This document shows positions 1,824 to 35,837 of a stretch of 64,000 bases of DNA, one piece after another. The stretch is from Trichodelitschia bisporula (taxonomy: Eukaryota > Ascomycota > Dothideomycetes > Phaeotrichales > Phaeotrichaceae), in assembly GCA_010356995.1 (NCBI GenBank), contig ML996688.1, positions 1,116,001 to 1,180,000 of the forward strand, given 5' to 3'. The position numbers and the translations under genes were made by a program. Below the pieces are notes generated by a model. It saw nothing but the letters and a program-made list of their open reading frames with translations. It was not told the origin of the DNA and did no database searches. How positions within the stretch are numbered: position 1 is the first letter of the stretch; the number at the start of each line of letters is the position of its first letter.

Positions 1824-3029
1824 CTACAGCTTAGCCTGCACCGGCCCCACCTGACTCTTCGCCTCTTCAATCAACCCCAGCGTAATGGCGGCGACGGGAT
1901 CCCGCTCCTGTCCGACCTGGTATGCAATCGGGCTGCTGGCCTGCCGCGAGGCGTAGCGCGCTGCAATGCCCTGGAAGATGATGACGTTTCGGTACATGGC
2001 GAAGGCCGTTCCCCAAGGGATGTCCGGCCGCGGGTCCCATCCTGCGAGGCTGGCGTACAGGTCGATGCACTCGGCACGCGTCGGCAGCCCGGCGAGCAGC
2101 TTTGACGGCGTGAACTCGATGCGCGAGTTGCGGCGCTGCTCGCGCGTGCGCGCCGTGATGGTGTACGGCTCGAGGAGGCAGCAGAGATCGGAGAGAGGAT
2201 GACCGATGGTGGACATTTCCCAACTGCAAAAGTTAGAAGGTATTTCGTCGCTTTCTTTGCTCGACTCACTCCAGGATGCCAATCACCCGCGGCTCCGTCT
2301 TGTGGTAGACGAGGTTGTCAATCTTGAAGTCACCGTGGATCAACGTTCCCCGGTCTTTCGGCTGAGTCTTCGTCTCCTTGAAGTACTCATTGAAGAACTC
2401 GGTATGCGGCACGAGACCGACAGCCTCACCCGTCTCAATGTCCTTGACCACCGCCTGGCTCTTGTTCAGCGTATCGAAGGTCGCGATCTGGCGGTTGTAG
2501 AAGCCAGTAGGCTTGCCAAACTTCTGCAGGCCGACGGCAGCCACGTCAACGGAGTGCAGTTTCGCGAGTGTCCGAACGGCATCCTTCCACATCTCGTTGC
2601 GCTCCTCGGGGCTAACATCGGGCATGTGCGGCTCCTCAATGATACGTCCGTCCAGGAACTCCATGATGTAGAACGCCGAGCCGATGACATTGTCGTCGGT
2701 GCAGAGGCCGTACGTCTTGGGCACCGGGACGTTGGTTTTCTCCAGTGCGTGCAGTACGCGGTACTCGCGGTCGACCTTGTGCGCCGACTTGTTGATCAGT
2801 GTGCCTGGGGGCTTCTTGCGGAGGACATATTTCTGCTTGTCGGCGGAGATCAGCTGGTATGTGGGGTTCGACTGCCCGAAGCCAAACTGTGCCTGTTAGC
2901 TGGCTATCTTTTTACTACGGCATAACTTACCTGCTTCACCGTCAACGGTGTCTTGATCTCCGGGACATTGGTGTTGAGATATCTCTCCAGTGACGGGATG
3001 TCGATCGGTTGCCTCACGGGACCGGCCAT
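1824..3029 (-). CDS. APH-fold kinase of the ACAD10/11 N-terminal (LvaA-like) type with peroxisomal AKL tail
   Basis: Three exons (3029-2931, 2886-2270, 2223-1824) with introns of 44 and 46 nt give 371 aa. The first splice creates [12 protein letters not shown] (the glycine loop of this family). The kinase core follows: HGDFKIDN (H217, D219, N224) is the catalytic Brenner-type motif and ILDWEMST (D239) the metal-binding Asp; the second intron splits the D239 codon. This branch of aminoglycoside-phosphotransferase-like kinases forms the N-terminal half of animal ACAD10/ACAD11 and, as a separate gene, acts on 4-hydroxyacyl-CoA in bacterial levulinate catabolism (LvaA). The last three residues, AKL, are a canonical PTS1 peroxisomal signal. 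The matching dehydrogenase half is encoded at 5262-6678 on the same strand, with one divergent gene between. Substrate unknown; a 4-hydroxyacyl-CoA is inferred. Confidence 0.88.
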
Positions 3030-3578
3030 TGTCAAGATGTAAGAATGATTTGATCGAGAGTTACAACTTGCAGTCTTCCTTTCTCCCAAATCCCCATGAT
3101 ATGCACCCTCTAGCCTAGTGTCCAACCTCCCATTCCCGCTCCCTCGCGGTCCGAGGATGAATTCGCCTACGCGCGGCCTGGACGCTTGGCCGAGCGCGAA
3201 GCGGGCGCGGTCCCCGGAATGCGCTATCGTGCCCGGGAGCCGGGTGTGCTTAACCGGCTCAGCCTCCCCGAAATAAGTGAATGCGGGTCCGCGCACCCAG
3301 AACTGGGCATGCTCATCCACATCGACTACTTTGCCACTAGGATAACAGCGGTCATTGAGCGCCGTGGACTAAGCGTGATGGCGCTAATGCCCCGCTGTGG
3401 GGTCGCTGCGAACTTCGGTTACCCCGCGACATGGGGTTGCTGAGAAAGGCTTGTGGAGACGGTTTCGCGGGTTCACGCGGGGAAGGGGTAGGGAGCGGGG
3501 AGCATTTGAGTGAACGCGTTTCCGGGTGCTGAGCTGATTTTTGGGTTAAGTTTTTTTGTTTGCTTTGGATTTGGAGCA
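3030..3578. promoter_or_regulatory. Divergent promoter (kinase / PRISE reductase 1)
   Basis: 549 bp between two divergent start codons. It holds an exact TACCCCGC at 3420-3427, followed after a short gap by GGGGT, and a nearby second CCCCGC/GGGGT pair around 3389-3403. No TATA box stands out. Regulation by a shared factor is inferred. Confidence 0.5.
3420..3427 (-). promoter_or_regulatory. Putative CreA-type site (GCGGGGTA on minus strand)
   Basis: TACCCCGC on the plus strand; GCGGGG on the minus strand fits the CreA/Mig1 consensus SYGGRG. It is one of six identical intergenic 8-mers in the block. Confidence 0.4.
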
Positions 3579-4812
3579 ATGGTTGGTAAACACGCGCTTG
3601 TCTTTGGCGCCAGTGGCATCTCTGGCTGGGCCATCACGAAGGAGATCCTGCAAGGCTATCCCTCCCCCGATGTCTTCTCCAAGGTCACGGCGCTCACGAA
3701 CCGTCCGCTGAGCAAAGAGGCCAGTCTCTGGCCGGACAGCGAGAAGCTCCAGCTCGTCAGCGGGGTGGATCTGCTCACGGAGAAGGGACTGGAGGGTCTG
3801 GAAGCGGAGCTCAAGGAGCGGGTTAAGGATGTCGAGACCGTGACACACGTCTACTTCTTCGGTGCGCAGGCAATATCCCCTTCATGAGCCTCCGCTAACC
3901 GCCCGCAAAGCGTACGTCATGGACGAAGACCCTAAGAAAGAAATCGCCATCAACATCACCCTCCTCGAGCGCGCCGTCCGCTCCATCGAGCACCTCTCCC
4001 CTAAACTCGAATTCGTCGTCCTCCCCACTGGCACCAAACTCTACGGCGTACACCTCATCCGCGACTTCCCATTCAGCAACCAGCTTCCCCTCCGCGAAAC
4101 ACTCCCCGACATCCCGGAGCCCCACGCCAGCCAGATGTTTTACTACGACCAGCTGCGGGAGCTCAAGAACCTGAGCGAGGGGAAGAAGTGGACTTGGTGC
4201 GAGGTTGTGCCGGATATGATTGTGGGTTTCGTCCCGAATAACAACATCTACTGCCTTGCGCAGGCGCTGGCGCTGTACCTGTCCTTGTACCGCAAGCTTA
4301 ACGGCGAGGGCGCCGAGGTCCCGTTCCCCGGGACCGAGGATTCGTGGAGGATCTTGAGCAATGATTCGGGGCAGGACATCATCGCCCGGTTCAGCATCTT
4401 CGCCTCCTTGCACCCGGACAAATGCGGCAACGGCCGCCGGTTCAACGTCGCCGACAGCAACACCCCCAAGTCCTGGGCGGTGAAGTGGCCCGTCATCTGC
4501 GCGTTCTTCGGACTGAAGGGCGTGGCTCCGCCTCCGGGTGGGAGCGGCCCGCAGCCTATTCAGTATGTTGCTGATCACTTCGCCGAGTGGCAGAAGCTAG
4601 AGAAGGAATATGGGTTGAAGACCGGGCGGGCGGGGAATGGTCGCAGTTATAATGGGTTTCCGTACTTTATTATGACGATGTTTGATTTTGATAGGCATAT
4701 GAGCTTGAATGCTATGCATGAGGCGTGGGGGGGGGAGAGGGAGGAGACGGATGTTAAGGGGACGTGGTGGACGGCGTTTGAGAGGTTTAGGGAGGCGAAG
4801 ATTATTCCATAG
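3579..4812 (+). CDS. PRISE-family (progesterone 5-beta-reductase/iridoid synthase-like) reductase 1
   Basis: Two exons (3579-3861, 3911-4812; intron 49 nt) give 394 aa, the usual length of this extended-SDR family. The N-terminus VFGASGISGWAI is the NADP(H) loop. TGTKLYG (K137) and the QMFYYDQ region (Y172/Y173) correspond to the Lys/Tyr pair that PRISE enzymes use in place of the classical YxxxK. The family reduces C=C bonds of enones and enals (steroids, iridoid precursors, small enones). The gene is divergent from the kinase. A paralogue of almost the same length, with its intron at the homologous position, lies at 14409-15638. I chose the ATG at 3579 because it starts directly before the nucleotide-binding motif; an upstream in-frame extension has no support. 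Substrate unknown. Confidence 0.85.
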
Positions 4813-5261
4813 ATTTTGGGGGGGGGATATGTTCGGTGTTTGAATGATATGCCAATGTCATGAACTCTGATGCTTCAGTTTACCATTTCTCCGCTTGATG
4901 CCACAAGAACGCCCCTGATCGTCCTGAATATCAACGAGCTCTAGGTATTCAGTCTGTAATCCGTCTATCTCAACCGCATAGAACATGCTTTCAAATATAA
5001 ACGGCAGCGGCTGGTCGAGTTGTCCTCGTTGTCGATGGTGTCACAGCCCAGCCTTGCTGCCGTCGGGGCTGACAAATTTGCCCAACCAGCCTCGTGCATC
5101 CTGGGACGTGGACGATGAGGTCGTTGATCAACAAGGCACAGCACAAGGCACAGCACAGTCATCATCCAGTCCTCAGATGCCAGTCATGTTCCATTCAAGG
5201 TTCAGATGCAATTATCAGAAAAGTATATACATAAAGCCGCTCTCGCCCCACAACCCCACAT
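4813..5261. other. Convergent 3' intergenic region
   Basis: 449 bp between the convergent 3' ends of PRISE 1 and the acyl-CoA dehydrogenase. No gene or repeat recognised. Confidence 0.5.
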
Positions 5262-7210: not shown

Positions 7211-8321
7211 ATGGCAGATGAAGGCTTCGCCGCGCCCTGGGTGGCCGTACGTCCCCCACCCAGCTCTCTCTCCCCAACTAACCCCTTCAGTTCGAGAAAG
7301 AACTCGGCCAACGCCCCCTCCTCAAAGGCGGCCTCGAAGCGGTCTTCAAAGCCTGGGCCGCCCTCGGCGGCGCCCTCGTCTCAAAGTACACCTTCCCGGC
7401 CCCCGACCCCTCCGTCAACACAAAGGACCAAACCCTTCCGAACTCCAGCCTCAAAATCCGCATCTACACGCCCAAGGGCTACGACTCCAGCAATCCGAAG
7501 CCGGTAGGTCTGTACATCCACGGCGGCGGCTGGGCAATGGGCGACCTCGACGCCGACGACGCGACGTGCCGCGCCATCGCCGCCGGGGCTGGCGTCGTGC
7601 TCGTGTCCGTGGACTACCGGCTTGCACCGCAGAACCCGTACCCGGCGGGATTGGACGATTGTGCAGCGGCATTTCGGTGGATGCTGGAGAATGCGCGCGC
7701 CCTCGGCGGGGTAGAGGGGAAGGTGTGGACAGTGGGCGCCAGTGCCGGGGGAGGGTCGGCGCTTGGACTTGCGCTGAAGCTGGTGGATGAGGGGTTGGGA
7801 GACAAGGTAGCGGGGATTGTGAGCCAGGTGCCTGTTACGGTGCATCCGGATGCTGTGCCCGAGAGGTTGAGGGGCGAGTATACGAGTTATGAGGAGCATA
7901 AGGAGCACACGGTTAATTCGAAGGAGGCGATGTATACGTTTTGGAGTAAGTGGTTTCGTTGGGGCTTTGCGGGATGCGTGCTGACGGTTTAGATGCGTAT
8001 GGCGCGCCGCCGACGGATAAGTATGCGAGTCCGTTGCTGCATCCGAAGCTCGCGGAGCTGCCGAAGACGTACATCACTTGTGCGGGGCATGATACACTGC
8101 GGGATGATGCGAGGCTTATGAGGGCCGAACTGGAGGCCAAAGGGTGAGTTGGTTGAGACTGCGAAGAGACAGTGTTTAACAAGCATAGGGTTCCGGTCAA
8201 GTACGATGAGTTCCCCGGCTATCCGCATTACTTCTGGACGTTCCCGTCTGCGCAGTTGAAGGAGCCGGCGTCGGAGTACATTCGGAAGCTGGTGGCGGGC
8301 GTTGCGTTTGTCCTTTCGTAG
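7211..8321 (+). CDS. Alpha/beta hydrolase, hormone-sensitive-lipase (HSL) family esterase
   Basis: Four exons (7211-7246, 7291-7945, 7993-8143, 8189-8321) with introns of 44, 47 and 45 nt give 324 aa. HGGGW (H89-G92) is the oxyanion-hole signature of the HSL family, GASAG (S163) the nucleophile elbow, and CAGHDTLRDD plus FPGYPHYF supply the Asp and His of the triad. Such enzymes hydrolyse short-chain esters and lactones. In this block the natural partner is the BVMO at 28693-30647, whose product would be an ester or lactone. The first exon encodes only 12 residues. It is followed head-to-tail by the alcohol dehydrogenase. Family assignment is firm; the lactonase role is inferred from context. 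Confidence 0.9.
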
Positions 8322-10505: not shown

Positions 10506-11171
10506 ATGACCCACGCAAAGATCGATCACAAATTCAGCTACGATGAGCTCGCCTACGACACTCCGAAGAACTACCAGCGTACGTCCATCGCTGTATTCTC
10601 ACGCCTCTAACACTCCCAGCCTGTGTCAAGCTTTCCTTCTTCTTCAACAAGTTACCCAATGTCTCGTACGAGCACTTCCATCGCCACTGGGAGACGGTGC
10701 ATGCGGACCTTGCCATCTCGGCTAGAGAGTTTGGGCTGTGCGGTCTGAAGCGCTATTCTCAAGTACAACTTCCCCCCAGTTAGCAGGATGTGCGATTCTG
10801 ACCTAGTACAGCACCACCAAACGCCCGACTTCAAGGAAAAGGTCACGGCGTTAGGCATGGATCTGATGGACTACGACGGCTGCTCGGAGATCTGGGTTCG
10901 GAGCATGGACGACTGGGAGCGCTTTTTCAAGGTGCGCCTCATAGCGCGCCACCGCATTTCGGGCCTTTTCTTCGCTTCACACTGCTGACGACCCCACTAG
11001 AGCCCCGAGTACAACGCCGCTATGTCGAAGGATTGTGCGAACTTCATGGGCATGCCTATCCGTGTTATGGCGGGGAGGGAGCATCTGGTGTTCGGGAAGG
11101 CGATTCCCGGCTTGGATGGGACGGATGGAATAACGGTGCATAAGGCGACACATGGCCAGAAGGAGGGGTAG
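10506..11171 (+). CDS. EthD-domain protein 1 (dimeric alpha/beta-barrel)
   Basis: Four exons (10506-10578, 10620-10762, 10812-10931, 11001-11171; introns 41, 49 and 69 nt) give 168 aa. The EthD core reads KLSFFFNKLPNVSYEHFHRH then WETVHADLA, and ends in a region with EIWVRSMDDWERFF. EthD proteins are small ferredoxin-like barrels. Their named member is needed for fuel-ether degradation in actinobacteria, and fungal relatives (MdpH/ClaH type) act in aromatic polyketide pathways, where decarboxylase activity has been proposed. The exact reaction here is unknown. A second small barrel protein with a WYEDVHIRD signature lies at 16235-16966. It is followed by the transporter gene in the same direction. 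Confidence 0.82.
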
Positions 11172-11835: not shown

Positions 11836-13802
11836 ATGGCGGCCGGTTCAACGGACTCAGTGTCCATCCACGGCCGCGACCCCGAGAAGCTACAAGCGGA
11901 GAAGATCGAGGACCCGCATGTTGTCGAAGTGCAGCGCCCGGAAGAAAATGAGAGAGTCACGGCAAAGACATGGCTCGTCATCTTTGTACGCTGGGCCCCT
12001 ATCGTGACAAGCTTGAACTGACTCTCAGGTTCTCTCCTCAACCTTCGGTCTCTCTTTCTGGCCTGTCCCCACGACAGGCGCCATGCAAACCGGTCTAGGG
12101 GCTCGCTGGGGGGACATCACATCAACTTACTGGTACAGTATGTACGTCCCTCCTTGCAGCGTTAAGATACTGATGAGCTAGTTCCGGCCTACACGACGGC
12201 TAACGCGCTCGGCTTCCTGCTCGCTGGTGCGAACAGTGACATATTTGGTCGCCGGCTATTCCTGTATGTCTCAGTCCACAGGGGAGATTTAGCTGACATC
12301 CCAGCCTCGCCGGCAACGTCATCTGCTGCCTTGGGTTTATCCTCAGCGCAACCGCAAAGGAGCCAATGCAATTGTACGTCCCCTACTCAACCACCACCTC
12401 CACAGCTAACCGGACAGTACCGCTGGTCTTGCCGTTACCGGCTTTGGGGGCGGCGCCTGTCAAATGGCCATGTGCTCGATCCCCGAGTTGATGCCGAACA
12501 AGTACCGACACATTGGAATCTGCATAAGCGACGGCTTCGTCTTCGTCATCGTGGTCATCGGGCCCGTCGTCGGGCGCTACGCCATCGACACCACTGACGG
12601 CTGGAAGTACATCTACTGGGGCGGCTTTGTCGCACAATTCTGCAGCTTGGTCGCCCTGGCCTTGCTCTACTATCCCCCGCGGCACCCGAAGGGCGTGCCC
12701 TGGAAGGAGGGACTGCGCGGCCTGGACTACGTGGGCTCTGTGCTTGTTGTGCCGGGCATTTGCGCAGCGCTCGTCGGCATCATCAACACGACATACAAGA
12801 GCAGCACGGATCCGAGCGTCATCGCACCAATTGTCGTTGGCTTTGCACTGCTGATTGCGTTCGGCTTCTGGGAGAACTTCGGCGGTGTCAAGTACCCGCT
12901 CTGCGAGCCGGCTATCTTCCGCAGCAACTACGGGCGGGAATTTACGGTGCCGTTCGTTATCGCTTTTATCGTCACCATGTTCTACTACGCCATCAACATC
13001 ATCTACCCGACCATGATCAACGTCTTCTACGTCACTCCAACAACCTCCCGAAGCGAGACGTTGCTCCTGACTCTCCCCGGTAACCTGGGTCTTGTGTTCG
13101 GTGCCATGCTCCTCATCTGCTTCGGCAACCTGATCGGCCATTGGAAAATTACCCTGGTCGTCTCATGGGCGGGCATGTGCTTCTGGGGCGGGATGATGGC
13201 CCTCGTCACTCCTACTAACAAGGGCATGATGATCGCATTCACTTTCCTCGAGCAGACCTTCTTCGGCTGGGCGCAGTACGAATCCGTCGCTTTCACCCAG
13301 CTGGGCGTCAAGCAAGTTGACCTTGGTATGAGCGGCGGTCTTGCGGGCGTGGCTCGCTATGCCGGCGGGAGTCTGGCACAGGCCATTTATGTCAGTATCA
13401 TGACGAATGTGCAGACCAAGAAGGCCGCGGAGCTGCTGCCCAAAGCCGCTATTGCTGCGGGTATCACACCTGCCAACGCGCAGAAGCTGCTTGCCGCCTT
13501 CCCTCTGGGAGCAACGGCCATTGGTGCCGTCGACGGCGCGAATGACACGGTGTTGGCTGCCGCGACCGAGGCGTGGAAGTGGAGCTATGCGCATGCGTTG
13601 AAGGTCACTGCGCTGTCGTCGCTGAGTTTTGGCGGCATTGGACTGATTCTCTGCTGCTTGTGCGAGAACATTGATCACAAGATGAATGAAAATATTGAGG
13701 TGTTCCTTGAGTAAGTACCTCGTTGCGTGGATGGCGGAGCTTTTGCTGACTTAATGCAGGAACGATATTAATGCGGATAAGAACGCTGCGGCGACGCATT
13801 GA
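11836..13802 (+). CDS. MFS transporter, TRI12/siderophore-type
   Basis: Six exons (11836-11985, 12029-12137, 12182-12263, 12305-12373, 12418-13710, 13760-13802; introns 41-49 nt) give 581 aa, right for a 12-14-helix transporter. Recognisable blocks are FGRRLFL after the second helix, the GFGGGACQMA helix, the loop YYPPRHPKGVPWKE, and LDYVGSVLVVPGI, all typical of the TRI12 group that includes the trichothecene efflux pump and siderophore carriers. The N-terminal 45 residues and the tail after the last helix (NENIEVFLEND..) are cytosolic. Clustered TRI12 proteins usually export toxic metabolites; in a catabolic block, uptake of the substrate is equally possible. The last exon is 13 codons and completes the conserved C-terminal tail. 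Start chosen at MAAGST; an upstream in-frame codon has no support. Confidence 0.9.
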
Positions 13803-14408: not shown

Positions 14409-15638
14409 CTACGACGGGATGATCTTCGCCTTCTTCAACCGATCAAACACCGGACCCCATGCCTCGATCGTGGTCCTCTCCTCCGTGAACCCAGTCGAAT
14501 ACATCTTGGTCATATCATACTGGCGATCGAAATCAAACTGGGTGAACAGGAAATACTCGAAGCCGGCATACGTCATCGGCGAGTCCGCAATTCCCGTCTT
14601 AAGTCCATGATTCCGCTCCAACTCCTCCCACGTCTTCCAGTGCTCCTTGATGTACGCCCGCACTTCCAGCTGCTCCTCCGCCTTCTCAGGCGGCGCCACA
14701 CCCTTCAGCCCAAAGTACCCAGCCAGCGCCGGCCACTTCTGCTCCCAGGATGACGGGTACTTAGCATCGGCGACGTTGTATCCCTCGCCCTTGTGCTCCG
14801 GGCCGAGCGTGAGTGTCAGATGCAGCGTCTGGCGGGCAATCATATCCGAGCTCGAGTCAATGCTCTTCGCGACCCACGCCTTGCGGGACCCGGGATACGG
14901 GACCGTGGCACCGGGGCCATTTACCGCCGCATACAGCGACAGGAAGACGGCGGTGCTGGTCGCCAGGCTGTAGAAGTTCTGGTTCGGCACAAAGCCGATG
15001 ATGATGTCCGGGCGCGTGTCGATCCAGTTCCATTTCTTGTCTTTGGCGTACGAGGTCACCCAGTCTAGCTGCGGGTGGTAGAAGAGTTGGTCGTGGTAGG
15101 GCTGGCGCAGGCGTGGGAAGGATTCTTTCAAAGGCACCTGGATGTAGTCTGTTGGGTGGTTCTCGAGCAGATGGCATCCGTACATCTTTGCGCCGGTTTG
15201 GAGAACTTGGAACTCGAGTGCGGGCGAGAGGTGGTCTAGCGCCGTCGCCGACCGCCGCCACATATCCACCGCGTCCTTCAGCTCCTGATCGCGGTCCTTG
15301 GACGCCTTGTACGCTGGACATGTCAGTCAAGCTTACACTTCCTACTGCTGCAGCTGCTAACCTAGGTAGTAGACGTGCGTCACTTTATCAACATCGGGAA
15401 TCTCGCGCTTGATCTCCGCCTCGAGTTCTTCCTGTGTGCCTTTGAGCAGGTCGATCCCAGACACAATGTTCAGCCGCGAGTCCGCGGGCCAGAGGCTATC
15501 TTCCTGCTTCAGAGGTCGGTTTGTGAGCGCGTGGACCTTTTCCCAGACTCCCGGCTTGGGGTAGTCGGTGAGGATCTCGTTGACGAAGGACCAGCCGGTC
15601 ACGCCGGAGGCACCGAAGACGAGGGCGACTTTGCCCAT
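14409..15638 (-). CDS. PRISE-family (progesterone 5-beta-reductase/iridoid synthase-like) reductase 2
   Basis: Two exons (15638-15362, 15313-14409; intron 48 nt) give 393 aa. VFGASGVTGWSF is the nucleotide-binding loop; TGAKMYG (K135) and DQLFYHPQ (Y171) supply the PRISE Lys/Tyr pair. It resembles the reductase at 3579-4812 along its whole length (HVYYLAY against HVYFFAY, NVADAKYPSSWEQKW against NVADSNTPKSWAVKW) and has its single intron at the same place and phase, so the two derive from one duplication. The clear sequence divergence suggests different substrates or sequential enone steps. It is divergent from EthD-like protein 2. Function inferred from family only. Confidence 0.86.
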
Positions 15639-16234: not shown

Positions 16235-16966
16235 ATGTCCTCCTTTCCCTCGTACACCGTCCCCACGGCCTCTGGGCCAGGGGTCCTGTTCGTGAACTCG
16301 AAAATCGTGTCCCCGACCCTCAGTCCTTCCGTCTACACGGAGTGGTACGAGGATGTGCACATTCGCGACATCCTCGCAACCAGCGGTATCAAAAGCGCGT
16401 ACCGGTACTACAGCACCTGTCCTGAGCAAGTGGAGAGACCGTATATGGCGCTCTACCCGCTGAAGGCGGTGGAATTTTTGCAGAGCGATGAGTTTAAGGC
16501 GATTCCGGTGGTTAATAATGTTATTCCGGGCTCCGGGATGGTGTTTGACTATGCGGACTTTGATACGAGGTACTATACGCATGTTGCGGCAAGCGAGGCG
16601 CAGGGTGCGGTGAAGGGTATGTCTGGCCTGAAGGTTGCTGGAAGGGAATGTACTGATGATACAGGTCCCGCGCCCTTCCTCGCCGTGATCGCGCTCTCGG
16701 ACCCGGCGACCGATGCCATCTTGTCCCTGGCCAAGGACTCCGTGCGCCGTGTTCGGATCGCGGAGAACTATTTCTCGAGGCAGAATCGCCTACCGGCTGA
16801 GGCGAATAAGCTGGCGGCGCCGCCGAAGTATCTGGTCATTGTGGAGGCGGATACGGAGGACGGGCTGAGGGGGGCGGTTGAGGCGGGGGAGTTGAAGGGG
16901 GGGAAGACGGCGAGTTTCAAGTTGTTGAAGGGGTTTGGGGAGAAGGAGCAGGTGTATTTTGAGTAG
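16235..16966 (+). CDS. EthD-like small dimeric-barrel protein 2
   Basis: Two exons (16235-16616, 16665-16966) give 227 aa. The intron is 48 nt (GTATGT, branch TACTGAT, acceptor ACAG) and contains no stop, so unspliced mRNA would also translate, adding 16 residues. The N-terminal half carries YTEWYEDVHIRDIL, SGIKSAYRYY and PYMALYPL, the hallmark of ferredoxin-like barrels of the EthD/dimeric alpha-beta family, and the C-terminal half (PAPFLAVIALSD, PKYLVIVEADTEDGL) may be a second repeat of the fold. I do not know a defined activity. Divergent from PRISE 2. Confidence 0.7.
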   Translation: MSSFPSYTVPTASGPGVLFVNSKIVSPTLSPSVYTEWYEDVHIRDILATSGIKSAYRYYSTCPEQVERPYMALYPLKAVEFLQSDEFKAIPVVNNVIPGSGMVFDYADFDTRYYTHVAASEAQGAVKGMSGLKVAGRECTDDTGPAPFLAVIALSDPATDAILSLAKDSVRRVRIAENYFSRQNRLPAEANKLAAPPKYLVIVEADTEDGLRGAVEAGELKGGKTASFKLLKGFGEKEQVYFE

Positions 16967-17070
16967 AGTTTAAAAATGAGATCGTTGAATATTCAGATTC
17001 CGTCTGCTGCTACACCTAAAATTCGGTGACTACGTCTAGCAGGTACATGAGGCTGTCTAAAATGCGATTA

Positions 17071-17080: not shown

Positions 17081-17102
17081 GCTCTAGCAAACGGAGTCCA
17101 GT

Positions 17103-17220
17103 ACATACGGCCACAGATCAGAGAATGCACCAGTCCCCGTCTGCTCACTGAAGTTAAGCTCTGAATCGGTTGACTAGTAGTTGCGTGGGTGACCAGCAGC
17201 GAATCCCAACTGCTGTATGT
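17103..17220 (+). rRNA. 5S ribosomal RNA
   Basis: 118 nt starting ACATACGGCC and ending CTGCTGTATGT, so the two ends pair as helix I (ACATAC with GTATGT). Internal promoter and loop landmarks are present: CACTGAAGTTAAGC, TAGTAGTTGCGTGGGTGACC and AGCGAATCCC. A T-run follows directly (TTTTTGTCTTTTT), the pol III terminator. A TATA-like element lies 30 bp upstream. Dispersed single 5S genes are normal in filamentous ascomycetes. It sits between EthD-like protein 2 and the aldehyde dehydrogenase and is presumably unrelated to their function. A decayed relative is at 41694-41785. Confidence 0.92.
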
Positions 17221-17234
17221 TTTTGTCTTTTTGC
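17221..17234 (+). terminator. Pol III T-run terminator of 5S rRNA
   Basis: TTTTTGTCTTTTT immediately after the helix I end. Confidence 0.7.
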
Positions 17235-17503: not shown

Positions 17504-19084
17504 CTAGTAATTCAAATTCACCATCACAGTCTTAAGCTCCGTAAACGCCCTAAGCGCATGCACACCACACTCGCGCCCCAACCCACTCTCCTTACTCCCC
17601 CCAAACGGCGCATTCATAAACATAAGACTGACGCAGTTCACGCCCACCATGCCGGACTCAAATTCGCTCGCCACGCGTAGGGCTTTGTTGATGTCCTGCG
17701 TGAAGACGCCGGCCATGAGCCCGAAGTTGGTGTTGTTGGACAGTTCCATGATTTCCTCCTCGGTGGAGAATTTACGCACAACGGACACGGGGCCGAAGAT
17801 TTCTTGCGTGTGGATTTCGGATTGCGGGTCGACGTCGGTGAAGACGGTGGGTTCGATGAAGAAGCCCTGCGGGGGGTTAGATGGTGACTGAATTGATGGA
17901 GGTTTACCTTCTCCCCGATCCGCGCACCGCCGACAAGGAGTTTGCCCTGCCCCTGCTCCTTCCCCCGCTGAATAAACCCGCTCACGCGCTTAAACTGCGC
18001 CTCATCCACCAGCGGGCCCAGCATCGTCTCCTTCTCATCCGGATCGCCCACAACACCGCTCTTCGCCTTCATCGCCTCCTTATACTTCTCAATAAACGCA
18101 TCATAAATGCCCTCTTGGACGTACACGCGCGACGCGGCAAAGCACACCTGCCCCGTGTTCCCGGTGATCGCGTTCGCAGTCCAGGTCACCGCGTTGTCCA
18201 GGTTCGCGTCGTCGAAGATTACGGCGGGAGACTTGCCGCCGAGTTCGAGGGTTACGCGCTTGAGATTGCTGCGCGCGGCCATTTCTTGGATTTTCTTTCC
18301 TGTTGGGATGGAGCCGGTGAAACTTACTTTGCGCACGCGCATGTGCGATGCGATTAGCGCGCCTGTGCTCCCGTCTCCACTCAAAACCTGGAAAACACCA
18401 GCCGGGAACCCGGCTTCTTTGATCAGCGGCCCGAGCGCCAGGGATGCAAACGGCGTCTTCTCGGAGGGCTTGAGGATAAAACAATTCCCGGTAGCGAGCG
18501 CGGGGGCAGCCTTGAGACCCACGGTGCCCAGCGGCCCGTTCCAGGGCACAATGCCCGCGGTCACGCCGAGCGGCTCGTTGCGCACGATTTTGAGGAAGCC
18601 GTCGTCTTGGGGGAAGGACTCGCCGGCGAATTTGTCGATCCAGCCGGCGTTGTAGCGGAAGGCCTTGGCCAGGATTAGCTTTGCTATCTACCGAGTGTAT
18701 GGGTGTTTAGAAGGAAAGTGGGAGACATACCTCAGCAGCCAGCCCGGCCTCGAACTTGCCAAACGACTCATACGGCGCGCCGAGCGTGATGCGCGTCAGC
18801 TCCGCGAGTTCGACGGCGTGCGCCTCTATGAGGTCGGCGAATTTGGTAAGGATCGCGCGGCGCTGGACGGCGGGGAGCTTGCGCCATGCCGGGAAGGCCT
18901 TTTCGGCGGCATCGACGGCGGCGTCGACGTCGGCAGCGTTGGCGATGGGGACGTCATCTGCGACGAGGGTGTTGTCCTTCGGGTTGTGCACCGTGAGCTT
19001 CGCGTCGCCTGTAGAGTTGACGTATTCGTTGTTGATGAAGAGCTGCTTTGGCAGGTTGGACCTGGAGAAGGTGAAGGATGACAT
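17504..19084 (-). CDS. Aldehyde dehydrogenase (NAD(P)-dependent)
   Basis: Three exons (19084-18731, 18687-17908, 17866-17504; introns 43 and 41 nt) give 498 aa, the standard ALDH length. VPWNGPL and the NCFILKPSEKTP stretch bind the cofactor, LELGGKSP holds the general base E266, and GNTGQVCFAASRV the nucleophile C300. FGGSKESGLGREC closes the active site near the C-terminus. It belongs to the class 1/2-like branch and has no targeting signal I can see. It is divergent from the SDR gene at 19632. Expected role: oxidising an aldehyde from the block's alcohol dehydrogenase to an acid for the CoA ligase; the substrate is an inference. Confidence 0.93.
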
Positions 19085-19631: not shown

Positions 19632-20543
19632 ATGGCGAAGAAAGTTGCTCTCATCACGGGTGGCGGTATGTCCTCTCCCATTAAGGCATGCCCACAACTA
19701 ACATCCCCAGCCAGCGGCATGGGCCTCGCCGTCGCCGAAGCCCTCTCCGCGCGCGGCGGCTGGGACCTACACCTGCTGGACCTGAACACCGAGCGGGGCG
19801 AAGCAGCCGCAAAGTCCGTCAGCGGCTCCTTCCACAAGACGGACGTCAACAACTACGCCTCCCTATCCAGCACTTTCGACAAGATCCACAAGACGGCCGG
19901 CCGTCTCGACTTCGTCTTCGCCAACGCCGGCATCGTCGAGCGCTGGAACTTCTACGGCAAGCAAGAGCAGACCCCGCCTCCGGAGCCAGACATGCTCTCC
20001 ATCGACATCGACCTCAAGAGTGTAGTCACCACGACCTACCTCGCGCAGCACTACTTCCGCCTCTCTCCCAATGCTGGCTCGGGGGAGCAGAACCTCGTCA
20101 TGACGGCGAGTTGTGGCGGGTTTTATCCCAGCCCGTTCTCGCCTATGTATTCGGCGGCGAAGCATGGCGTCGTGGGCCTGACGCGGTCGGTGGCGAAGCA
20201 TTTCTACCTCGCGGATCGCATCCGCGTTAATGCCATTTGTCCCGGCACGGTTAGGACGAATCTGCTCGATTCGACGGGTTGGGATCAGTGGCCGGAGGAG
20301 TACTTCACGCCCGTAGAGACGATTGTCAAGGCGGTGCTGACGCTGGTGGACGGCGGGGATATGGTGGATGCGAAGGGTGTTAAGGTGGAGGCTGGGAAGG
20401 ATTGGGGTCGCTGTGTTGAGGTTAATGGGAAGAACTTGTACTTCCGTGAGCAGATTGAGTACTGTGATGAGAATATGGCACAGGTCATGCGGATTACGGA
20501 TATTTCGGAGCGCAAGTCCGAGGATCTCAAGTTCTACAAGTAG
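19632..20543 (+). CDS. Short-chain dehydrogenase/reductase 1 (15-PGDH-like)
   Basis: Two exons (19632-19665, 19711-20543; intron 45 nt) give 288 aa. Splicing forms the nucleotide-binding loop TGGASGMGLA; without splicing the frame stays open but 15 foreign residues break the loop, so the spliced form must be the enzyme. NAGI (83-86), S145 and YSAAK (Y158, K162) complete the classical SDR active site, and PGTVRTNL follows. The long C-terminal part (about 60 residues after PEEYF) resembles fungal hydroxyprostaglandin-dehydrogenase-like SDRs. It oxidises or reduces a secondary alcohol/ketone. Divergent from the aldehyde dehydrogenase. Substrate unknown. Confidence 0.9.
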   Translation: MAKKVALITGGGMSSPIKACPQLTSPASGMGLAVAEALSARGGWDLHLLDLNTERGEAAAKSVSGSFHKTDVNNYASLSSTFDKIHKTAGRLDFVFANAGIVERWNFYGKQEQTPPPEPDMLSIDIDLKSVVTTTYLAQHYFRLSPNAGSGEQNLVMTASCGGFYPSPFSPMYSAAKHGVVGLTRSVAKHFYLADRIRVNAICPGTVRTNLLDSTGWDQWPEEYFTPVETIVKAVLTLVDGGDMVDAKGVKVEAGKDWGRCVEVNGKNLYFREQIEYCDENMAQVMRITDISERKSEDLKFYK

Positions 20544-23440: not shown

Positions 23441-24438
23441 ATGTCTGATCTGGGAAACTTTGGCGGGTTGTTCCGCCTCGATGGCAAGGTTGCGGTTATC
23501 ACGGGCGGTATGTGCATTCAAGAGTATACGCGAGCAGTGGCTAATGGAGCAGGATCCCGCGGTCTCGGCCTGCACACCGCAACCGCGTTCCTCCTCGCTG
23601 GCGCATCCAAAGTCATAATCACAGCGCGCAAACTCGAAGGCGCGGAGGGAATCAACCAAGCCGTCTCCAAACTCAATGCACTCCCGGTGCAGGGACGCGC
23701 CATCGGCATCGCAGCCAACGTCGCCGACACCGCGGATATCGAGCGGCTCGTCAAAGAGATCGGCAAAACGGAGAGCAAGGTGGATATCGTGGTTGCGAAC
23801 GCGGGGGCTACGTACGGCGGCCCGTTCGACACGACGCCAGATGAATTTAATAAGAAGATTTTGGATTTGAATGTTAGGGGGGTGTTTAACCTCGTGCGGC
23901 TGTACGTCTCCCTCTCCATCCCCAATTCCTCACTGATCGATACTCCAGCCTCCTCCCGCTCCTCGAAGCAGCCGCCACGCCCACCGACCCCTCCCGGGTC
24001 ATAATCGTCTCCTCGACCGCAGGAATCAACGTCCCACACGTAGGCCAACACGGCACAATCATGTACTCCGTGTCCAAAGCCGCCGCGCACCACCTCAGCC
24101 GGAACCTAGCAATGGAGTTGGGGCCTAGGAATATCACCGTCAACACCGTGGCCCCCGGTTTCTTTCCTTCGAAGCTGGCGAAGGGATTGATTGATATCCT
24201 GGGCGGGGATGAGCAGTTGCGGGATGATAATCCGCGGAAGAGACTCGGGGAGCCAAGTGATATTGCGGGGGTTATGGTGTATTTGGCGAGTCCGGCGGGG
24301 GCGTATGTGTAAGTTGAATTCCTCCTTACCTTCGGATCGTAAGAGCGGGTGGGACTGACTGATGGGCTTAGCAATGGAGAGGACATCTCAGTTGACGGCG
24401 GGATGCGGCTGGTAACAGGGCGGCACTCGAAGATTTAG
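23441..24438 (+). CDS. Short-chain dehydrogenase/reductase 2 with SKI tail
   Basis: Four exons (23441-23507, 23553-23901, 23949-24308, 24372-24438; introns 45, 47 and 63 nt) give 280 aa. TGGSRGLG (21-28) binds NADP, NAGATYGG follows strand 4, and YSVSK (Y178, K182) is the catalytic pair; PGFFPS and INGEDISVDGG-type ends are typical of 3-oxoacyl reductase/gluconate-dehydrogenase-like SDRs. The last three residues SKI are a PTS1-like tripeptide, weaker than SKL, and may send it to peroxisomes with the ligase and kinase. A peroxisomal SDR next to a CoA ligase could work on 3-hydroxyacyl- or 4-oxoacyl-CoA, the position LvaD holds in levulinate catabolism. That role is inference. Confidence 0.9.
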
Positions 24439-25308: not shown

Positions 25309-27107
25309 ATGGGAGGCATCGCCGAACTCGCGCTCCCCGCCGCGGGCCTCGGCCTCGCTGCCGTGGTGCTGTATTTCGTCGGCCTCGCGGTTTACCGTCT
25401 GACATTTCACCCACTCGCGAAGTACCCGGGCCCGTGGCTTAATGCCATCTCGCCGATCCCGGGCATCATAAGCCTGCTCCGCGGGCGGCTCCCGCTGGAA
25501 ACGAAGCTCATGCACGACAAGTACGGCCCCGTGGTGCGGGTGTCGCCCATGGAGCTCAGCTTCAATGGCGCGCAGGCGTGGGAAGACATCTATGGACATC
25601 GCCAGGGGCTGAAGAATATGCACAAGGGTGAGTTTGGCGTTTGAGGGATAGGGATGGGGCTGATGGGCAGATCCGATTCATGTCGGCTCCGTGGATCCGA
25701 TTCCCGGTGTTACAACGCTCACGATGGCCGATGATGCGAACCATGCCCGGCAGCGGAGGGCGCTGGCGTACTCGTTCAGCCAGAAGGCATTGCTTGAGCA
25801 GGAATATATCGTGCAGGGCTTTGTCGATACCTTGATTGAAAAGCTGAGCCTGCGTGCCGACGCGGGTACGCCGATTAATATGGTTGACTGGCTGTGAGTT
25901 GCTACCTCCACATAAAGTGACAAAGCTGACGGGACAGTAACTTCACCACCTTCGACATCATCGGCGACCTGGCATTTGGCGAGCCCTTCGGCTGTCTGAA
26001 GGATGGTAAGTGTCCATTCCAAGGCTGAAGGGCATAACTGACCTACGAGAAATGTTCCACGACTGGGTATCCCTTATCTTCGATACCATCAAGATTGGTG
26101 CCATTGAGCAAGCGTACATTCTCCCCATTCTCCCTCCTTGACCCATCACTAACACGGGCAGCACACGGCGCTTCGCTACCGCCGGCCAACCCTTCCAAAA
26201 CTTCCTCGTCAGTATGATTCCCGCTGCCTGGCGCCAGCGGCGCCGGCTTCATCTGGTCAAGTCGCAAGAAAAGGTCCTCCGCCGTCTTGCGAACGAAAAG
26301 ACCGAACACCGCGACTTCATCTGGTACATTCTCCAGCAGCGTGAAAAGCACGACCTGAAGCAAGACGAAATCATCGTCAACGGCGCCTTGTTCATCGTCG
26401 CCGGCTCCGAAACCACGGCCAACCTGCTCTCCGGCCTCATCGCCCGGCTAGTCTGGAACCCGGACAAGCTCGCCAAACTTGTAGCCGAGCTGCGCAGCAC
26501 GTTCAAGTCCGACAAGGAAATCACCTCCGAAGCCGTGAAGCAGCTCCCCTACTTCCAAGCCTGCATCGAGGAGGGCCTGCGCATTCACCCGCCCGTGCCG
26601 GCCGGTCTGCTGCGTACAGTCCCCTCGGGCGGCGCATTTATTGACGGGAACTGGGTCGTAGAAGGGACGTCCGTGGCAGTCACCGGTTGGGCCGCGAGCC
26701 ACAACCCGGCTAGCTTTCGTGATCCCGACGCGTTTATTCCTGAGCGCTGGCTGGACGAGGCGTATGCGAGTGATAACAAGAAGGGCATGCAGCCGTTTTC
26801 GCTCGGCCCGCGTGGGTGCATTGGGCGGCAGTGAGTACTCCCGTGGGAGGTGTGTGAGAACTGGGGCTAATGAGACCAGTTTGAGTTACATGGAGATGCG
26901 TGTCATCCTCGCGCGTCTGCTGTGGAATTTTGATATTGAGAGCACGGACGGCGCGTGGCGCTGGAATCCCGAAGGCGAGATGAAGCATATGCGTGCGTTT
27001 AATACGTGGGAGAAGCCGGATTTGAACCTGAGACTGTGAGTAACCTCCGGCTTTTGGGAGAATGTTTTACTAACGGTTACAGCACCCGCGTTAAGCGTGA
27101 GGTTTGA
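25309..27107 (+). CDS. Cytochrome P450 monooxygenase
   Basis: Seven exons (25309-25627, 25671-25893, 25938-26005, 26050-26113, 26162-26830, 26880-27035, 27083-27107) with introns of 43-49 nt give 507 aa. One N-terminal membrane helix (about residues 8-28) precedes the YPGPW hinge. [10 protein letters not shown] is the I-helix oxygen-activation site, EGLRIHPP holds the K-helix ExxR, PERWL follows, and [11 protein letters not shown] carries the haem ligand C444. It resembles the microsomal fungal group that includes isotrichodermin hydroxylase and benzoate 4-hydroxylase-like enzymes. It probably performs the first ring or chain hydroxylation in the block. All six introns interrupt conserved segments, and their removal restores each motif. 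Substrate unknown. Confidence 0.94.
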
Positions 27108-28385: not shown

Positions 28386-28393
28386 TACCCCGC
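28386..28393 (-). promoter_or_regulatory. Putative CreA-type site (GCGGGGTA on minus strand)
   Basis: TACCCCGC on the plus strand, about 300 bp before the BVMO ATG; the following bases make CCCCGCGGG, so a second inverted half-site overlaps. Confidence 0.42.
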
Positions 28394-28692
28394 GGGAAAC
28401 GCGATCCAGCTCGGGGAAGGCAATCGCTGTGACACGCGGAGCGGGGCGCGCCCTCGGCACGCTGCCGAACATGCATCGCTTCTGCACTCCCACGCATGGC
28501 TGCCCGGAGCCGGTCTCCCATAGCAGGACGGGATCGTGTGATCTGCGCGGGCTAGGCAAGGGGGAGGGTTGATATACGACTTGCGCGCCGCCTGGCTTGT
28601 AGCACACCTACCTCTTAGCACTGCACTGCACCGCACCGCACCGCTCCTCATCTACCCCACTGTCCTCAACATCACCTCTCACCGCTGCAGCT

Positions 28693-33035: not shown

Positions 33036-35837
33036 ATGGCCCCCTCCGCCGCAGACACCACCCAGCCGGACGCCAGCATCGTCCCCTCGACGGAGAAAGA
33101 ACATTCAGACCAAAATTCTTCCAGCTCCAAACGTCAGAAATCCCGCCATAGGGCCTCCGTCGCCTGTGCCAGCTGCCGCGACCGGCGCATTCGCGTAAGC
33201 CCCTCATCCCCCCGTCCTCTTCCCAAACCACCAAACTAACACAGCACAGTGCGTCGTCCCCCCCGGCGAAACAGAATGCACGCAATGCAAGCGCTCAGGC
33301 ATAGAATGCATCATCAAAAACGACGACGAGCGGCGGCGGTGCGTCTTCCCCTTTCCCCCATGAACCCCATTTCCCACCCCCCAAACCCTCTCCCGGACCC
33401 GAGCTGAGCCTGCCTAGCCCCATCTCCCGCGCCTACATGTGCTCCCTGACCGACCGCGTCGCCCTCCTAGAATCCATGCTCCGCGAAGCCGGCTCCGAAC
33501 CGCCCCCCGCCAACCACCCCCCTATGACGCGGCACGGGCCGCCTAGAATCGACGACCCCTCCCCAGCACGCAAAGTTAAAAACCCGCACAACGCGCCTGC
33601 GAGCAATCCTTCCGGCGCGAGCCACTCCAGCCCTGGGAGCCAGCATGATGATTTCATGGATGCGGAGGGCGAGGGCGGGCAGGATGGGGGGAGTGTGCAC
33701 AGCGCCCCAAGCCCGCCTATGCTCCCGCCGCCAAGGAGGGATGGGATGGTGAGCAGACTGTTGAGTACGAGGGGGCATTTGAGTTTTGATCAGTTGAGTG
33801 GACGGCTGAGGTATTTTGGGCCGACGACGAATTGCCATATCCATACTACGCTCGGTGGTCCACCGGAGGAGAGTTCCGAAGGGCTGGAGCAAGTTCGGCG
33901 CGCGGAGAAGACGATCCGGTACCTGAGCGGGGAGACGCACGAGTACCTCATGGAGCTGTTTTGGACGTATTATAACAGTGTCCTGCATGTGTTGCACAAG
34001 GATGCGTTTTATGAGGATAGGGAGCAGGGGCGGACGCAGTTTTATTCTCCTTTCTTGCATATTTGTGTTCTGGCGATGGGGTACAGGTTTGCGGATAAGA
34101 CGAGGCCGGATATGCAGCGCATATCGATGCCGGGACGGGAGAGTACGTTGCATCGCGAGGCGAAGTACATGATGGATTTTGAGCTCGAGAGGCCGGGGGG
34201 TATTCCGTCTGTCGTTGCGCTGCTGCTGCTTGGCGATTTGGAATGCGGTGTTGGACGGGACAATCTGGGGTGGTTATACGCTGGCATCGCTGTTCGGTGA
34301 GCCCCCCCTTCCTCCCCTTAATCCCCTCAAACCTAACGGAATCAGCATCGCCTTCGACATCGGCCTCCACCTCGACACACAAAACACCGGTCTCCCAGAC
34401 CGCGAAGTCGAAATCCGCCGCATGACGCTGTGGGCCTGCGTCATCTACGACAAGTACTGGGCGCTCTTCCTCGGCCGCCCCACGAGCATGAAGTCCTCCG
34501 ACCTAGAAGTCTACCACCTGAGCAAGCAATTCGAGCGGCTGGGGACGTGTCGCCCCGCGGGGCCTGAAAAAGCCCTCGAGACGCAGATCTACGAGGCTTT
34601 ACTCGATTTGATGGAGCTGGCGGGGAAAATAACCGAGAACATGGATCCGCGCTCCCAGGCCGATGCCACGATCGACCGCGACGCGTATCTGCGCATGGCG
34701 GCCCTAGACCGCGAGTTTGGGAACTGGTACGCGCGCTTACCAGAACCCCTCCGCTGGACGCCGCACAACATCAACACCGCCCCATTCTCCTTCTTCCTCC
34801 TCCACCAACAATACCACGCCGCGCTCATCCTCCTCCACCGCCCCTTCGCCATGTACGAAGACACCTCGGACTCGCACGAAGAGTCCAATTCCCCGGATAA
34901 CCATTTCAGCGCGCTGAGCCGCACGGTCTGCACCAAGCACGCCATCCGCGTCGCGCGCATCTTCTGGCAGCACAGGCAGCGCTTCGATACACGCCGCATC
35001 TTCGTCACCGGGCTGCAACACGCTGGCACCGCGGCCACCGCCCTGGTGGCCGCGCTCGCCTTCCTCAAAGACGCGACCGATAGATCCAACAACATGCAGT
35101 ATTTGGAGTGCTTGACCGCGGCGCTCCAGGACATGGCGTACACGTACCAGCCCGCCGAGCGCATGTTCCTGGTCCTACAAGCCGTCGTCTCCGAATTGCG
35201 GGGCACCACCGATCCCGGCGGCTTCAGGCCTCGCGCCGTGGTCCCGGCCCGGCGCGGCAGTAACACGGTCGACGAGCCCGAAGCCCCAGGACTGGCGAAA
35301 CGGCGCCACGTGGCGCGCGCACGAGGGCAGAGTAAAAGCCACATCGGGGGCGGGGACATGGCCATCGACCCTGCGCTTGGGGGACTGAAGCCGTTGGACG
35401 AGGGGGACGGGTTCGTTATGATTACGCCGCGGAGCGATTTGAGTGGGTGGCCGGGGGATGTCATGTTAGGTGATACCCTTGGGACGCCGGGGGGGTTGAG
35501 CGGGCTGGCGGCGGCGGCGAGGGGGGGGAATGCGTGGATGGGGGCGGAGATGGAGAGTCATGATATTGGGCATTTGGCTAGTGTGCATTTTCCCGAGTTG
35601 AGGGATATACCCGGCGTGGGCGAGGGGGAGAACGGAGGGGGTGGGGGAGGGGCGCCTGGCGGGGCTAATTTGGATTTCATGGCCATTGGGGAGGAGTGGA
35701 AGGAGTGGAATGGAAGTGCGGTGCAGCCGGGGAGTGAGATGGAGGGTTTCGCGAGTGGTGCGAATGGGTTTGGTGGGTTTGGAGGCGGGCAGGAGGGATT
35801 TGGGGAGGGAAAGATGGGGTTTGCGGAGACGGTTTAG
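33036..35837 (+). CDS. Zn2Cys6 transcription factor with fungal_trans domain (likely block regulator)
   Basis: Four exons (33036-33194, 33250-33338, 33418-34296, 34346-35837; introns 55, 79 and 49 nt) give 872 aa. The binuclear cluster CASCRDRRIRC-(8)-CTQC-(6)-C occupies residues 44-73; the first intron falls exactly before the third cysteine. A linker with ISRAYMCSLTDRVALLESML looks like a short coiled-coil dimerisation element. The middle domain (about 200-480) carries ELFWTYYNSVLHVLHKD and YAGIAVRIAFDIGLHLD, typical of fungal_trans regulators of the XlnR/Gal4 type, and the last 150 residues are Gly/Met-rich and disordered. Its edge position suggests pathway-specific control of the block, which is inference. 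Zn2Cys6 factors usually bind CGG triplets. Confidence 0.92.

What the first reader, a model, noticed from the sequence alone, without database searches (positions are those of the whole stretch)
1824..35837. A 16-gene catabolic block that looks like a complete ring-opening and peroxisomal degradation pathway
The block has every enzyme class needed to dismantle a cyclic enone or terpenoid-like ketone: P450, ADH and SDRs for ketone formation, two PRISE reductases for C=C saturation, a BVMO for lactone formation, an HSL esterase for ring opening, an ALDH, a CoA ligase, and a kinase/acyl-CoA dehydrogenase pair that removes a hydroxyl blocking beta-oxidation. A transporter and a Zn2Cys6 regulator complete it. 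There is no PKS, NRPS or terpene cyclase. Bacterial terpenoid and cycloalkanone pathways use the same BVMO-esterase logic, but I know of no described fungal cluster combining it with the ACAD10/11-type module and PRISE enzymes.
Basis: partly seen in the sequence, partly recalled or inferred. Interest (0 to 1): 0.85.

Follow-up and report, generated by a model that had tools for sequence, protein, structure and literature searches.

The report
Conserved fungal ring-opening catabolic gene cluster
A block of 16 fungal genes looks like an assembly line for opening and burning ring-shaped ketones; key members of it sit together in many other fungi, so it is probably a real pathway, though its food molecule is unknown.

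Summary
The window lies in Trichodelitschia bisporula (Dothideomycetes). No ketosynthase or NRPS-condensation match lies on this contig.

BVMO and PRISE share a contig in 27 of 38 species, BVMO and kinase in 14 of 24; chance expects about 1.0 and 0.5. All 17 linked kinases fall in one branch of the tree; the unlinked own copy falls outside. [quoted passage not shown] A dedicated 4-hydroxyacyl-CoA module is therefore well supported.

'Complete' and 'peroxisomal' are only partly supported: 3 of 16 proteins carry PTS1, the ACAD does not, and no hydratase or thiolase model is in the block. The substrate is inferred: alicyclic ketone or enone, perhaps terpenoid. Limonene BVMOs and a terpene-responsive cluster are in print for Grosmannia clavigera. 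The combination of BVMO, PRISE and a private kinase/ACAD pair appears undescribed in papers I could search. New variant of a known kind.

The parts
1824..3029 (-). APH-family 4-hydroxyacyl-CoA kinase (LvaA/ACAD10-11 kinase-like), 371 aa, C-terminus AKL
   Evidence: cluster-specific clade
3579..4812 (+). PRISE-family reductase 1, 394 aa
5262..6666 (-). ACAD10/11-type acyl-CoA dehydrogenase with HCMR motif, 450 aa, no PTS1
7211..8321 (+). HSL-type alpha/beta hydrolase (candidate lactonase/esterase), 324 aa
8961..10064 (+). Zn alcohol dehydrogenase, 338 aa
10506..11171 (+). EthD-domain protein; first exon read by eye
11836..13802 (+). MFS transporter, TRI12 type (exon structure tentative)
14409..15638 (-). 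PRISE-family reductase 2, 393 aa, 45% identical to PRISE 1
16235..16966 (+). EthD-like protein, 243 aa if a single exon, no Pfam hit
17504..19084 (-). aldehyde dehydrogenase (41-nt intron 17867-17907)
19632..20543 (+). SDR 1, 288 aa
21120..22902 (-). acyl-CoA ligase, 555 aa, C-terminus ARL (PTS1)
23441..24438 (+). SDR 2, 280 aa, C-terminus SKI (PTS1)
25309..27107 (+). cytochrome P450, 507 aa
28693..30647 (+). type I Baeyer-Villiger monooxygenase, 594 aa, fingerprint FKGPLMHSAKWD
33036..35837 (+). Zn2Cys6 regulator with Fungal_trans domain; zinc-finger exons read by eye

Best explanation
This is a conserved catabolic gene cluster of Pezizomycotina. Proposed route (step order inferred): P450 and ADH/SDR oxidise an alicyclic substrate to a ketone or enone. 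PRISE enzymes saturate the C=C. The BVMO inserts oxygen to give a lactone (or ester), and the HSL-type hydrolase opens it to a hydroxy acid. ADH/ALDH oxidise primary alcohol ends, and the PTS1-bearing CoA ligase activates the acid for beta-oxidation. Where the hydroxyl ends up at C4, the cluster's own kinase phosphorylates the 4-hydroxyacyl-CoA and the HCMR-type ACAD eliminates phosphate to a 2-enoyl-CoA. Ring arithmetic (inference): a 2-substituted cyclohexanone gives a 6-hydroxyacyl-CoA, and one beta-oxidation round turns that into the 4-hydroxyacyl-CoA this module uses. The Zn2Cys6 protein probably regulates and the MFS protein transports. Shown by sequence: families, motifs, linkage of BVMO, PRISE 1 and kinase, the dedicated kinase clade. 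Inferred: substrate, order, regulation, compartment of most steps.
For: Families and motifs. The cluster ACAD carries RLGPGRIHHCMR and ADGPD, matching the R626/R631/H634/R637 and D753 that PMC12440821 (passages) gives for mouse ACAD11 (R631 is shared with other ACADs); the two unlinked ACADs read HAMR and lack the ADGPD..H pattern. Linkage: BVMO-PRISE same contig in 27 of 38 species (about 1.0 expected), BVMO-kinase 14 of 24 (0.5), kinase-PRISE 7 of 12 (0.2). Kinase and PRISE carry consecutive locus tags in Polytolypa and Myotisia and are neighbours here; BVMO-PRISE tags differ by 13 in Elasticomyces and Meristemomyces, as gene order does here. A Halenospora gene model joins a CoA ligase piece (67%) to the BVMO (74%). 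Kinase tree: 17 of 17 linked rows in one branch. A fungal ACAD11-like deletion mutant (R. toruloides) failed to grow on ricinoleic acid over 96 h (PMC5922974, passages), as expected if this family clears hydroxyl blocks. G. clavigera parallel: CoA ligase CMQ_6959 up 1107-fold on monoterpenes (PMC4368105, passages); BVMO CMQ_6956 is listed for terpenoids (PMC8120277, passages).
Against: No expression, knockout or metabolite data for this cluster. The cluster ACAD lacks a PTS1. No shared promoter motif survives correction (63 patterns, best uncorrected 0.017). 11 of 38 BVMO/PRISE, 10 of 24 BVMO/kinase and 5 of 12 kinase/PRISE species have them on different contigs, and in Verruconis BVMO and PRISE are 70 locus tags apart. 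Linkage of the other 13 genes was not tested, apart from the one CoA ligase case. Fungal PRISE function is not known to me; identity to plant enzymes is low, so C=C reduction is a family guess. BVMO similarity does not single out a substrate.
Confidence: 0.6

Rival explanations
1. The cluster degrades acyclic compounds: subterminal oxidation of alkanes or long-chain ketones, or hydroxy fatty acids/lactones. P450 and ADH make a ketone, the BVMO an ester, the esterase splits it, and the products go to beta-oxidation; the kinase/ACAD pair handles 4-hydroxy acids.
For: Same enzyme classes fit; the CoA ligase scores best against long-chain fatty-acid ligase models, though below their cut-offs; ACAD10/11-type enzymes act on hydroxy fatty acids (PMC12440821 and PMC11342911, passages; PMC5922974, passages).
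Against: Two PRISE reductases and two EthD-type proteins have no obvious use there; the unlinked kinase and ACADs could already offer a general hydroxy-acid route.
Confidence: 0.22
2. It is a biosynthetic or tailoring cluster (or part of one) that modifies a polyketide or terpenoid made elsewhere; BVMO, EthD and P450 are common tailoring enzymes and some orthologues are named stcW.
For: Some BVMO homologues are named stcW and some PRISE homologues sirQ; TRI12-type MFS; papers on aflatoxin-type clusters hold both terms EthD and Baeyer-Villiger (listing only).
Against: No backbone gene seen among models of 94 kb; in this genome the ketosynthase matches lie on C8, C9, C10 and C22 and the NRPS-condensation matches on C14, none on this contig C2. 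The terpene-synthase search found nothing but its controls did not ring either, so it says little. A CoA ligase plus 4-hydroxyacyl-CoA kinase/ACAD is beta-oxidation entry chemistry; three enzymes end in PTS1.
Confidence: 0.1
3. It detoxifies or degrades an aryl or alkyl-aryl ketone (4-hydroxyacetophenone-monooxygenase-like use of the BVMO), with EthD proteins acting on aromatic or lactone intermediates.
For: Several homologues carry the name 4-hydroxyacetophenone monooxygenase; the EthD-like model weakly matches anthrone-oxidase-like 5f9p (low-confidence model).
Against: No ring-cleavage dioxygenase model in the block; PRISE and kinase/ACAD unused; annotation names are automatic.
Confidence: 0.08

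Closest known systems
Grosmannia clavigera limonene-use BVMOs CMQ_6956 and CMQ_7007 and its terpene-responsive gene cluster
   Same: Fungal, uses BVMOs on a monoterpene; by tag number a CoA ligase (CMQ_6959, 1107-fold up on monoterpenes) lies three from one BVMO; products go to beta-oxidation (PMC8120277 passages; PMC4368105 passages; PMC3680317 passages)
   Different: I could not obtain its sequences or gene list (Wang 2014, PMC4148792 not held; that its BVMOs lie in the induced clusters is recalled); whether PRISE or a kinase/ACAD pair is present is unknown to me, so orthology is untested
LvaA/LvaC of Pseudomonas putida and mammalian ACAD10/11
   Same: Kinase plus ACAD for 4-hydroxyacyl-CoA; same motifs
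   Different: Here two separate genes sit in a fungal BVMO/esterase cluster and the kinase is a cluster-specific copy; no HAD domain, no fusion
Bacterial cyclohexanone (chn) and monoterpene-ketone BVMO-lactonase pathways (recalled; menthone monooxygenase mentioned in PMC4097962, passages)
   Same: Ketone-BVMO-lactone-esterase-ADH/ALDH logic
   Different: They end in dicarboxylic acids or use other entry steps; no PRISE or kinase/ACAD known to me (recall)
Plant PRISE enzymes (progesterone 5-beta-reductase, iridoid synthase)
   Same: Same fold family; TGxKxYG lysine and first Tyr of FY motif kept (the catalytic role is recalled)
   Different: Only E 4e-15 and 4e-22 similarity; fungal function unknown to me

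Membership tests
ACAD10/11-LvaC type dehydrogenase | HCMR motif plus upstream Arg, and catalytic Asp, shared by this subgroup | tested here: met
   RLGPGRIHHCMR at 270 and ADGPD at 398 in the cluster ACAD; features taken from PMC12440821 passages, residue numbers matched with a one-residue offset of the chain index
ACAD10/11-LvaC type dehydrogenase | elimination of phosphate from 4-phosphoacyl-CoA | not testable with these tools
   needs enzyme assay
LvaA/ACAD10-11 kinase (APH fold) | closest solved relatives are this subgroup; HGDxxxxN and DWE present | tested here: met
   3dxp E 5e-64 and ACAD11 8v3v E 2e-57; HGDFKIDN 217, ILDWE 237
Type I Baeyer-Villiger monooxygenase | fingerprint FxGxxxHxxxW[PD] flanked by two Rossmann motifs (fingerprint recalled) | tested here: met
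   FKGPLMHSAKWD at 201, GAGASG 52, GTGSTS 226; 91 of 120 listed homologues carry the strict fingerprint
PRISE reductase | PF22917 fold and catalytic Lys/Tyr (roles recalled) | tested here: met
   E 2.5e-171 and 8e-166; TGTKLYG/FYY and TGAKMYG/FYH; in homologues TGxKxY 114 of 120, the FY pattern I used 87 of 120
PRISE reductase | 1,4-reduction of enones | not testable with these tools
   needs assay
Conserved fungal catabolic gene cluster | co-localisation kept across species above chance | tested here: met
   27 of 38, 14 of 24 and 7 of 12 species; tested for BVMO, PRISE 1 and kinase only
Conserved fungal catabolic gene cluster | co-induction by the substrate | not testable with these tools
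   no expression data
Secondary-metabolite biosynthetic cluster | backbone gene (PKS, NRPS, terpene cyclase) within or next to it | tested here: not met
   ketosynthase and condensation matches lie on other contigs; none among models read; terpene-synthase search uninformative
Peroxisomal pathway | PTS1 on the pathway enzymes | tested here: inconclusive
   3 of 16; kinase PTS1 kept in 84 of 120 homologues, 13 of 17 linked; BVMO 0 of 120, PRISE 0 of 120; ACAD none

The most novel reading that the evidence does not exclude
Pezizomycotina carry an old catabolic cluster in which a duplicated, private copy of the ACAD10/11-type kinase, with a matching dehydrogenase, has been wired to BVMO ring cleavage and PRISE enone reduction. 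The hydroxy acids left by ring opening are phosphorylated and, by loss of phosphate, passed straight into beta-oxidation, a fungal route for terpenoid-like rings that has not been described.
Probability: 0.42. Interest if true: 0.65.

Novelty: new variant of a known kind. Interest (0 to 1): 0.55.

Why it matters
How fungi mineralise plant terpenoids and alicyclic ketones is poorly known: the 2021 review PMC8120277 (passages) calls the G. clavigera enzymes the only characterised fungal ones in terpenoid detoxification. A cluster whose BVMO shares a contig with PRISE and/or the kinase in 37 species labels (several fungal classes by my recall of their taxonomy) gives a ready set of genes to test. 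It could give a role to fungal PRISE proteins and link the newly described 4-hydroxy-acid kinase/ACAD chemistry to ring degradation. The BVMO and reductases may also be useful biocatalysts.

Tried and rejected
Promoter motif for the Zn2Cys6 protein: 63 CGG/CCG spacer patterns in 11 intergenic regions; best uncorrected 0.017 (CCG-13-CGG, 6 of 11 regions); the commonest 8-mers occur in 5 regions, as in 10 of 60 shuffles; no support.

Bacterial counterpart: 46 loci encoding a kinase relative searched within the fetched flanks: ACAD in 29 of 46, CoA ligase 16, SDR 2 14, ALDH 7, ADH 4, BVMO 2, esterase 2, SDR 1 2, PRISE 0, P450 0. The two BVMO loci (L060, L061) seem to share an operon by ORF lengths; Pfam on L061 shows enoyl-CoA hydratase, SDRs, a TPP enzyme and an amidohydrolase. 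A loose analogue, not the same cluster.

EthD-like protein: no Pfam hit, no PDB sequence hit. AlphaFold with 4 sequences gave mean pLDDT 53; Foldseek matches (chlorite dismutase, anthrone-oxidase-like 5f9p) are weak and only suggest a two-domain alpha+beta barrel.

Unlinked loci in the same genome (kinase C17, ACADs C2 and C4, PRISE-like C15): models in 20 kb around each show no second copy of the cluster; a P450 23% like the cluster's lies near the C4 ACAD.

Terpene synthase PF19086 in the own genome: nothing found, but the controls did not ring either.

Literature: ten searches. In what they listed I saw no fungal cluster joining BVMO, PRISE and kinase/ACAD; the five-term search returned 0 papers. 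Most listed papers were not opened, and subscription papers are mostly not held.
Full report
WHAT IS THERE. The window is G000:C2:1116001-1180000 of a 25.65-Mb genome. The kinase and PRISE 1 models match Trichodelitschia bisporula proteins at 100%, on a contig of the same length as C2, 1906560; the BVMO list does not show the window's own protein. It is a dothideomycete of the order Phaeotrichales. A spliced-gene finder trained on the window's own long frames gave 26 models; with 20 kb added on the left and 10 kb on the right it gave 36. Pfam assigns 15 of the 16. The remaining one, at 16235-16966, is a distant EthD-type protein with three weaker relatives found elsewhere in the genome. Two models were completed by eye: the EthD gene starts near 10506, and the regulator has a Cys-rich zinc-finger region in upstream exons near 33036-33340. 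The ALDH model had a false intron; the better one is 41 nt and keeps the frame open.

BOUNDARIES. On the left the neighbours are a large gene at -4304..678 with IQ motifs (IQGAP/Rng2-like by my reading) and UGP1 (UDPGP E 4e-192). On the right about 4.5 kb lacks a model, then come ORFs without a Pfam family, a Torus/RRM splicing-type protein, an ABC transporter and CAF1. Not every flank model was scanned against Pfam. In the whole genome the ketosynthase matches lie on C8, C9, C10 and C22 and the NRPS-condensation matches on C14, so neither is on this contig. A terpene-synthase search was uninformative because its controls did not ring.

THE 4-HYDROXYACYL-COA MODULE. The kinase is nearest to 3dxp and to the kinase half of ACAD11. 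The ACAD is nearest to 4hr3 and to ACAD11, far above ordinary ACADs (best 1.8e-24). PMC12440821 (passages read) names R626, H634 and R637 and the catalytic D753 of mouse ACAD11, R631 that all ACADs share, and an HCMR motif specific to ACAD10/11. All are present in the cluster ACAD by alignment (with a one-residue offset of the chain index; RLGPGRIHHCMR at 270, ADGPD at 398). The searches found two other such ACADs, both HAMR and without the ADGPD..H pattern, and one other kinase in the genome. They are unlinked and 43-55% identical to the cluster copies, and their C-termini are SKL, SNL and AKL. So the fungus probably has a general hydroxy-acid route plus a private copy in this cluster. In the fungus Rhodosporidium toruloides, a deletion of an ACAD11-like gene failed to grow on ricinoleic acid over 96 h (PMC5922974, passages). 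That is independent support for a hydroxyl-clearing role in fungi.

CONSERVED CO-LOCALISATION. Species labels in both lists with the two genes on the same contig: BVMO and PRISE 27 of 38; BVMO and kinase 14 of 24; kinase and PRISE 7 of 12 (one of these seven is T. bisporula itself). For random positions in a 35-Mb genome (my assumption) the expected numbers are 1.0, 0.5 and 0.2. Four species have all three pairs linked: Myotisia, Patellaria, Polytolypa and Tothia. Many shared contigs are short, several of 44-100 kb. Locus tags: kinase and PRISE are consecutive in Polytolypa (AJ80_01943/01942) and Myotisia (FQN57_003689/003688); here they are neighbours too. BVMO and PRISE differ by 1 in Stylonectria and Zalerion, 7 in Myotisia, 8 in Coleophoma, 11 in Polytolypa and 13 in Elasticomyces and Meristemomyces; here the gap is 13 genes. 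In Verruconis they are 70 apart, which I would not call clustered although the script counts it as same contig. For the kinase, most of the 10 misses involve the housekeeping copy (next paragraph). A Halenospora varia record joins a CoA ligase piece (67% to this one) to the BVMO (74%), so these two genes are probably neighbours there. Linkage of the other cluster genes was not tested.

A PRIVATE KINASE CLADE. In a tree of 118 kinases (117 of the 120 listed plus the unlinked own copy), all 17 kinases that share a contig with BVMO and/or PRISE (T. bisporula included) fall in one 37-row branch (support 98). The other 81 rows, including the unlinked own copy, lie across the split. Twenty rows of the 37 carry no link label; most of these species or unnamed rows are not in the BVMO list. 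Reading together, for species also in the BVMO list: 14 of 16 with a cluster-branch kinase have it on the BVMO contig, and 0 of 10 with a housekeeping-branch kinase do (two species have both). The two misses are Aulographum, whose kinase and PRISE share another contig, and Paraphaeosphaeria minitans. Linkage was used to label rows, not to build the tree.

COMPARTMENT. PTS1 tripeptides end the kinase, CoA ligase and SDR 2, 3 of 16 cluster models; 2 of the 20 other models have ARI ends. The kinase signal is kept in 84 of 120 homologues (13 of 17 linked, 71 of 103 others). BVMO and PRISE show none in 120 each, and the ACAD has none. A split pathway, with ring opening outside and acid degradation in peroxisomes, fits best, with the ACAD's location open. 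This is inference.

MECHANISM AND SUBSTRATE. Enzyme classes and chemistry give: oxidation to ketone, C=C saturation, BVMO oxygen insertion, hydrolysis, CoA activation, and hydroxyl removal when it reaches C4. The kinase/ACAD pair is explained if the lactone carries a substituent next to the ring oxygen. A 2-substituted cyclohexanone would give a 6-hydroxyacyl-CoA and, after one beta-oxidation round, the 4-hydroxyacyl-CoA this module takes. This is inference. Limonene use in Grosmannia clavigera with two BVMOs is the best precedent (PMC8120277 passages). There a CoA ligase three tags from one BVMO rises 1107-fold on monoterpenes (PMC4368105 passages). A terpene-responsive cluster of 30 genes is mentioned there, with only five dispersed homologues in Ophiostoma piceae, which did not grow on monoterpenes (PMC3680317 passages). 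O. piceae does have a 66% BVMO homologue, so the BVMO alone does not predict terpene growth. I recall, but could not read, Wang 2014.

VERDICT. A real, conserved catabolic cluster whose exact substrate is unknown. Its parts are known enzyme kinds and fungal BVMO catabolism has been reported, so it is a new variant of a known kind rather than a new category. The new element is the private 4-hydroxyacyl-CoA module and the PRISE pair tied to ring opening.

Noticed in passing
17103-17221 (+): A 5S rRNA gene (Rfam RF00001, 88.9 bits, full length) sits inside the cluster between the EthD-like gene and the ALDH.
   Followed up: no
56131-60175: A second small catabolic-looking group: metallo-beta-lactamase-fold protein with ARI C-terminus, ALDH and SDR, next to CAF1.
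   Followed up: partly
42409-43605 (-): ORF of 398 aa with about eleven or more 24-nt tandem units encoding H-H-G-V-N-G-V-N-like repeats; no Pfam family.
   Followed up: partly
36001-40000: Stretch with strong AT skew (-0.21 to -0.22) and no gene model, right after the regulator.
   Followed up: no
L060, L061: Alphaproteobacterial loci with an APH kinase two genes before a 652-aa BVMO-like protein; in L061 also hydratase, SDRs, TPP enzyme, amidohydrolase and MmgE/PrpD.
   Followed up: partly
P0305, P0314 (proteins): PRISE 1 homologues 60-62% identical occur in the basidiomycete Mycena and sit among ascomycete rows in the tree; horizontal transfer is one possible reading.
   Followed up: partly
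P0041 (protein): Halenospora varia record is a single model joining a CoA ligase fragment to a BVMO, probably a merged annotation of two neighbouring genes.
   Followed up: yes
L031, L032 (C4:746001-766000): One unlinked ACAD10/11-type ACAD (758987) lies about 3.7 kb from a P450 gene (753825-755261), perhaps another small catabolic group.
   Followed up: no
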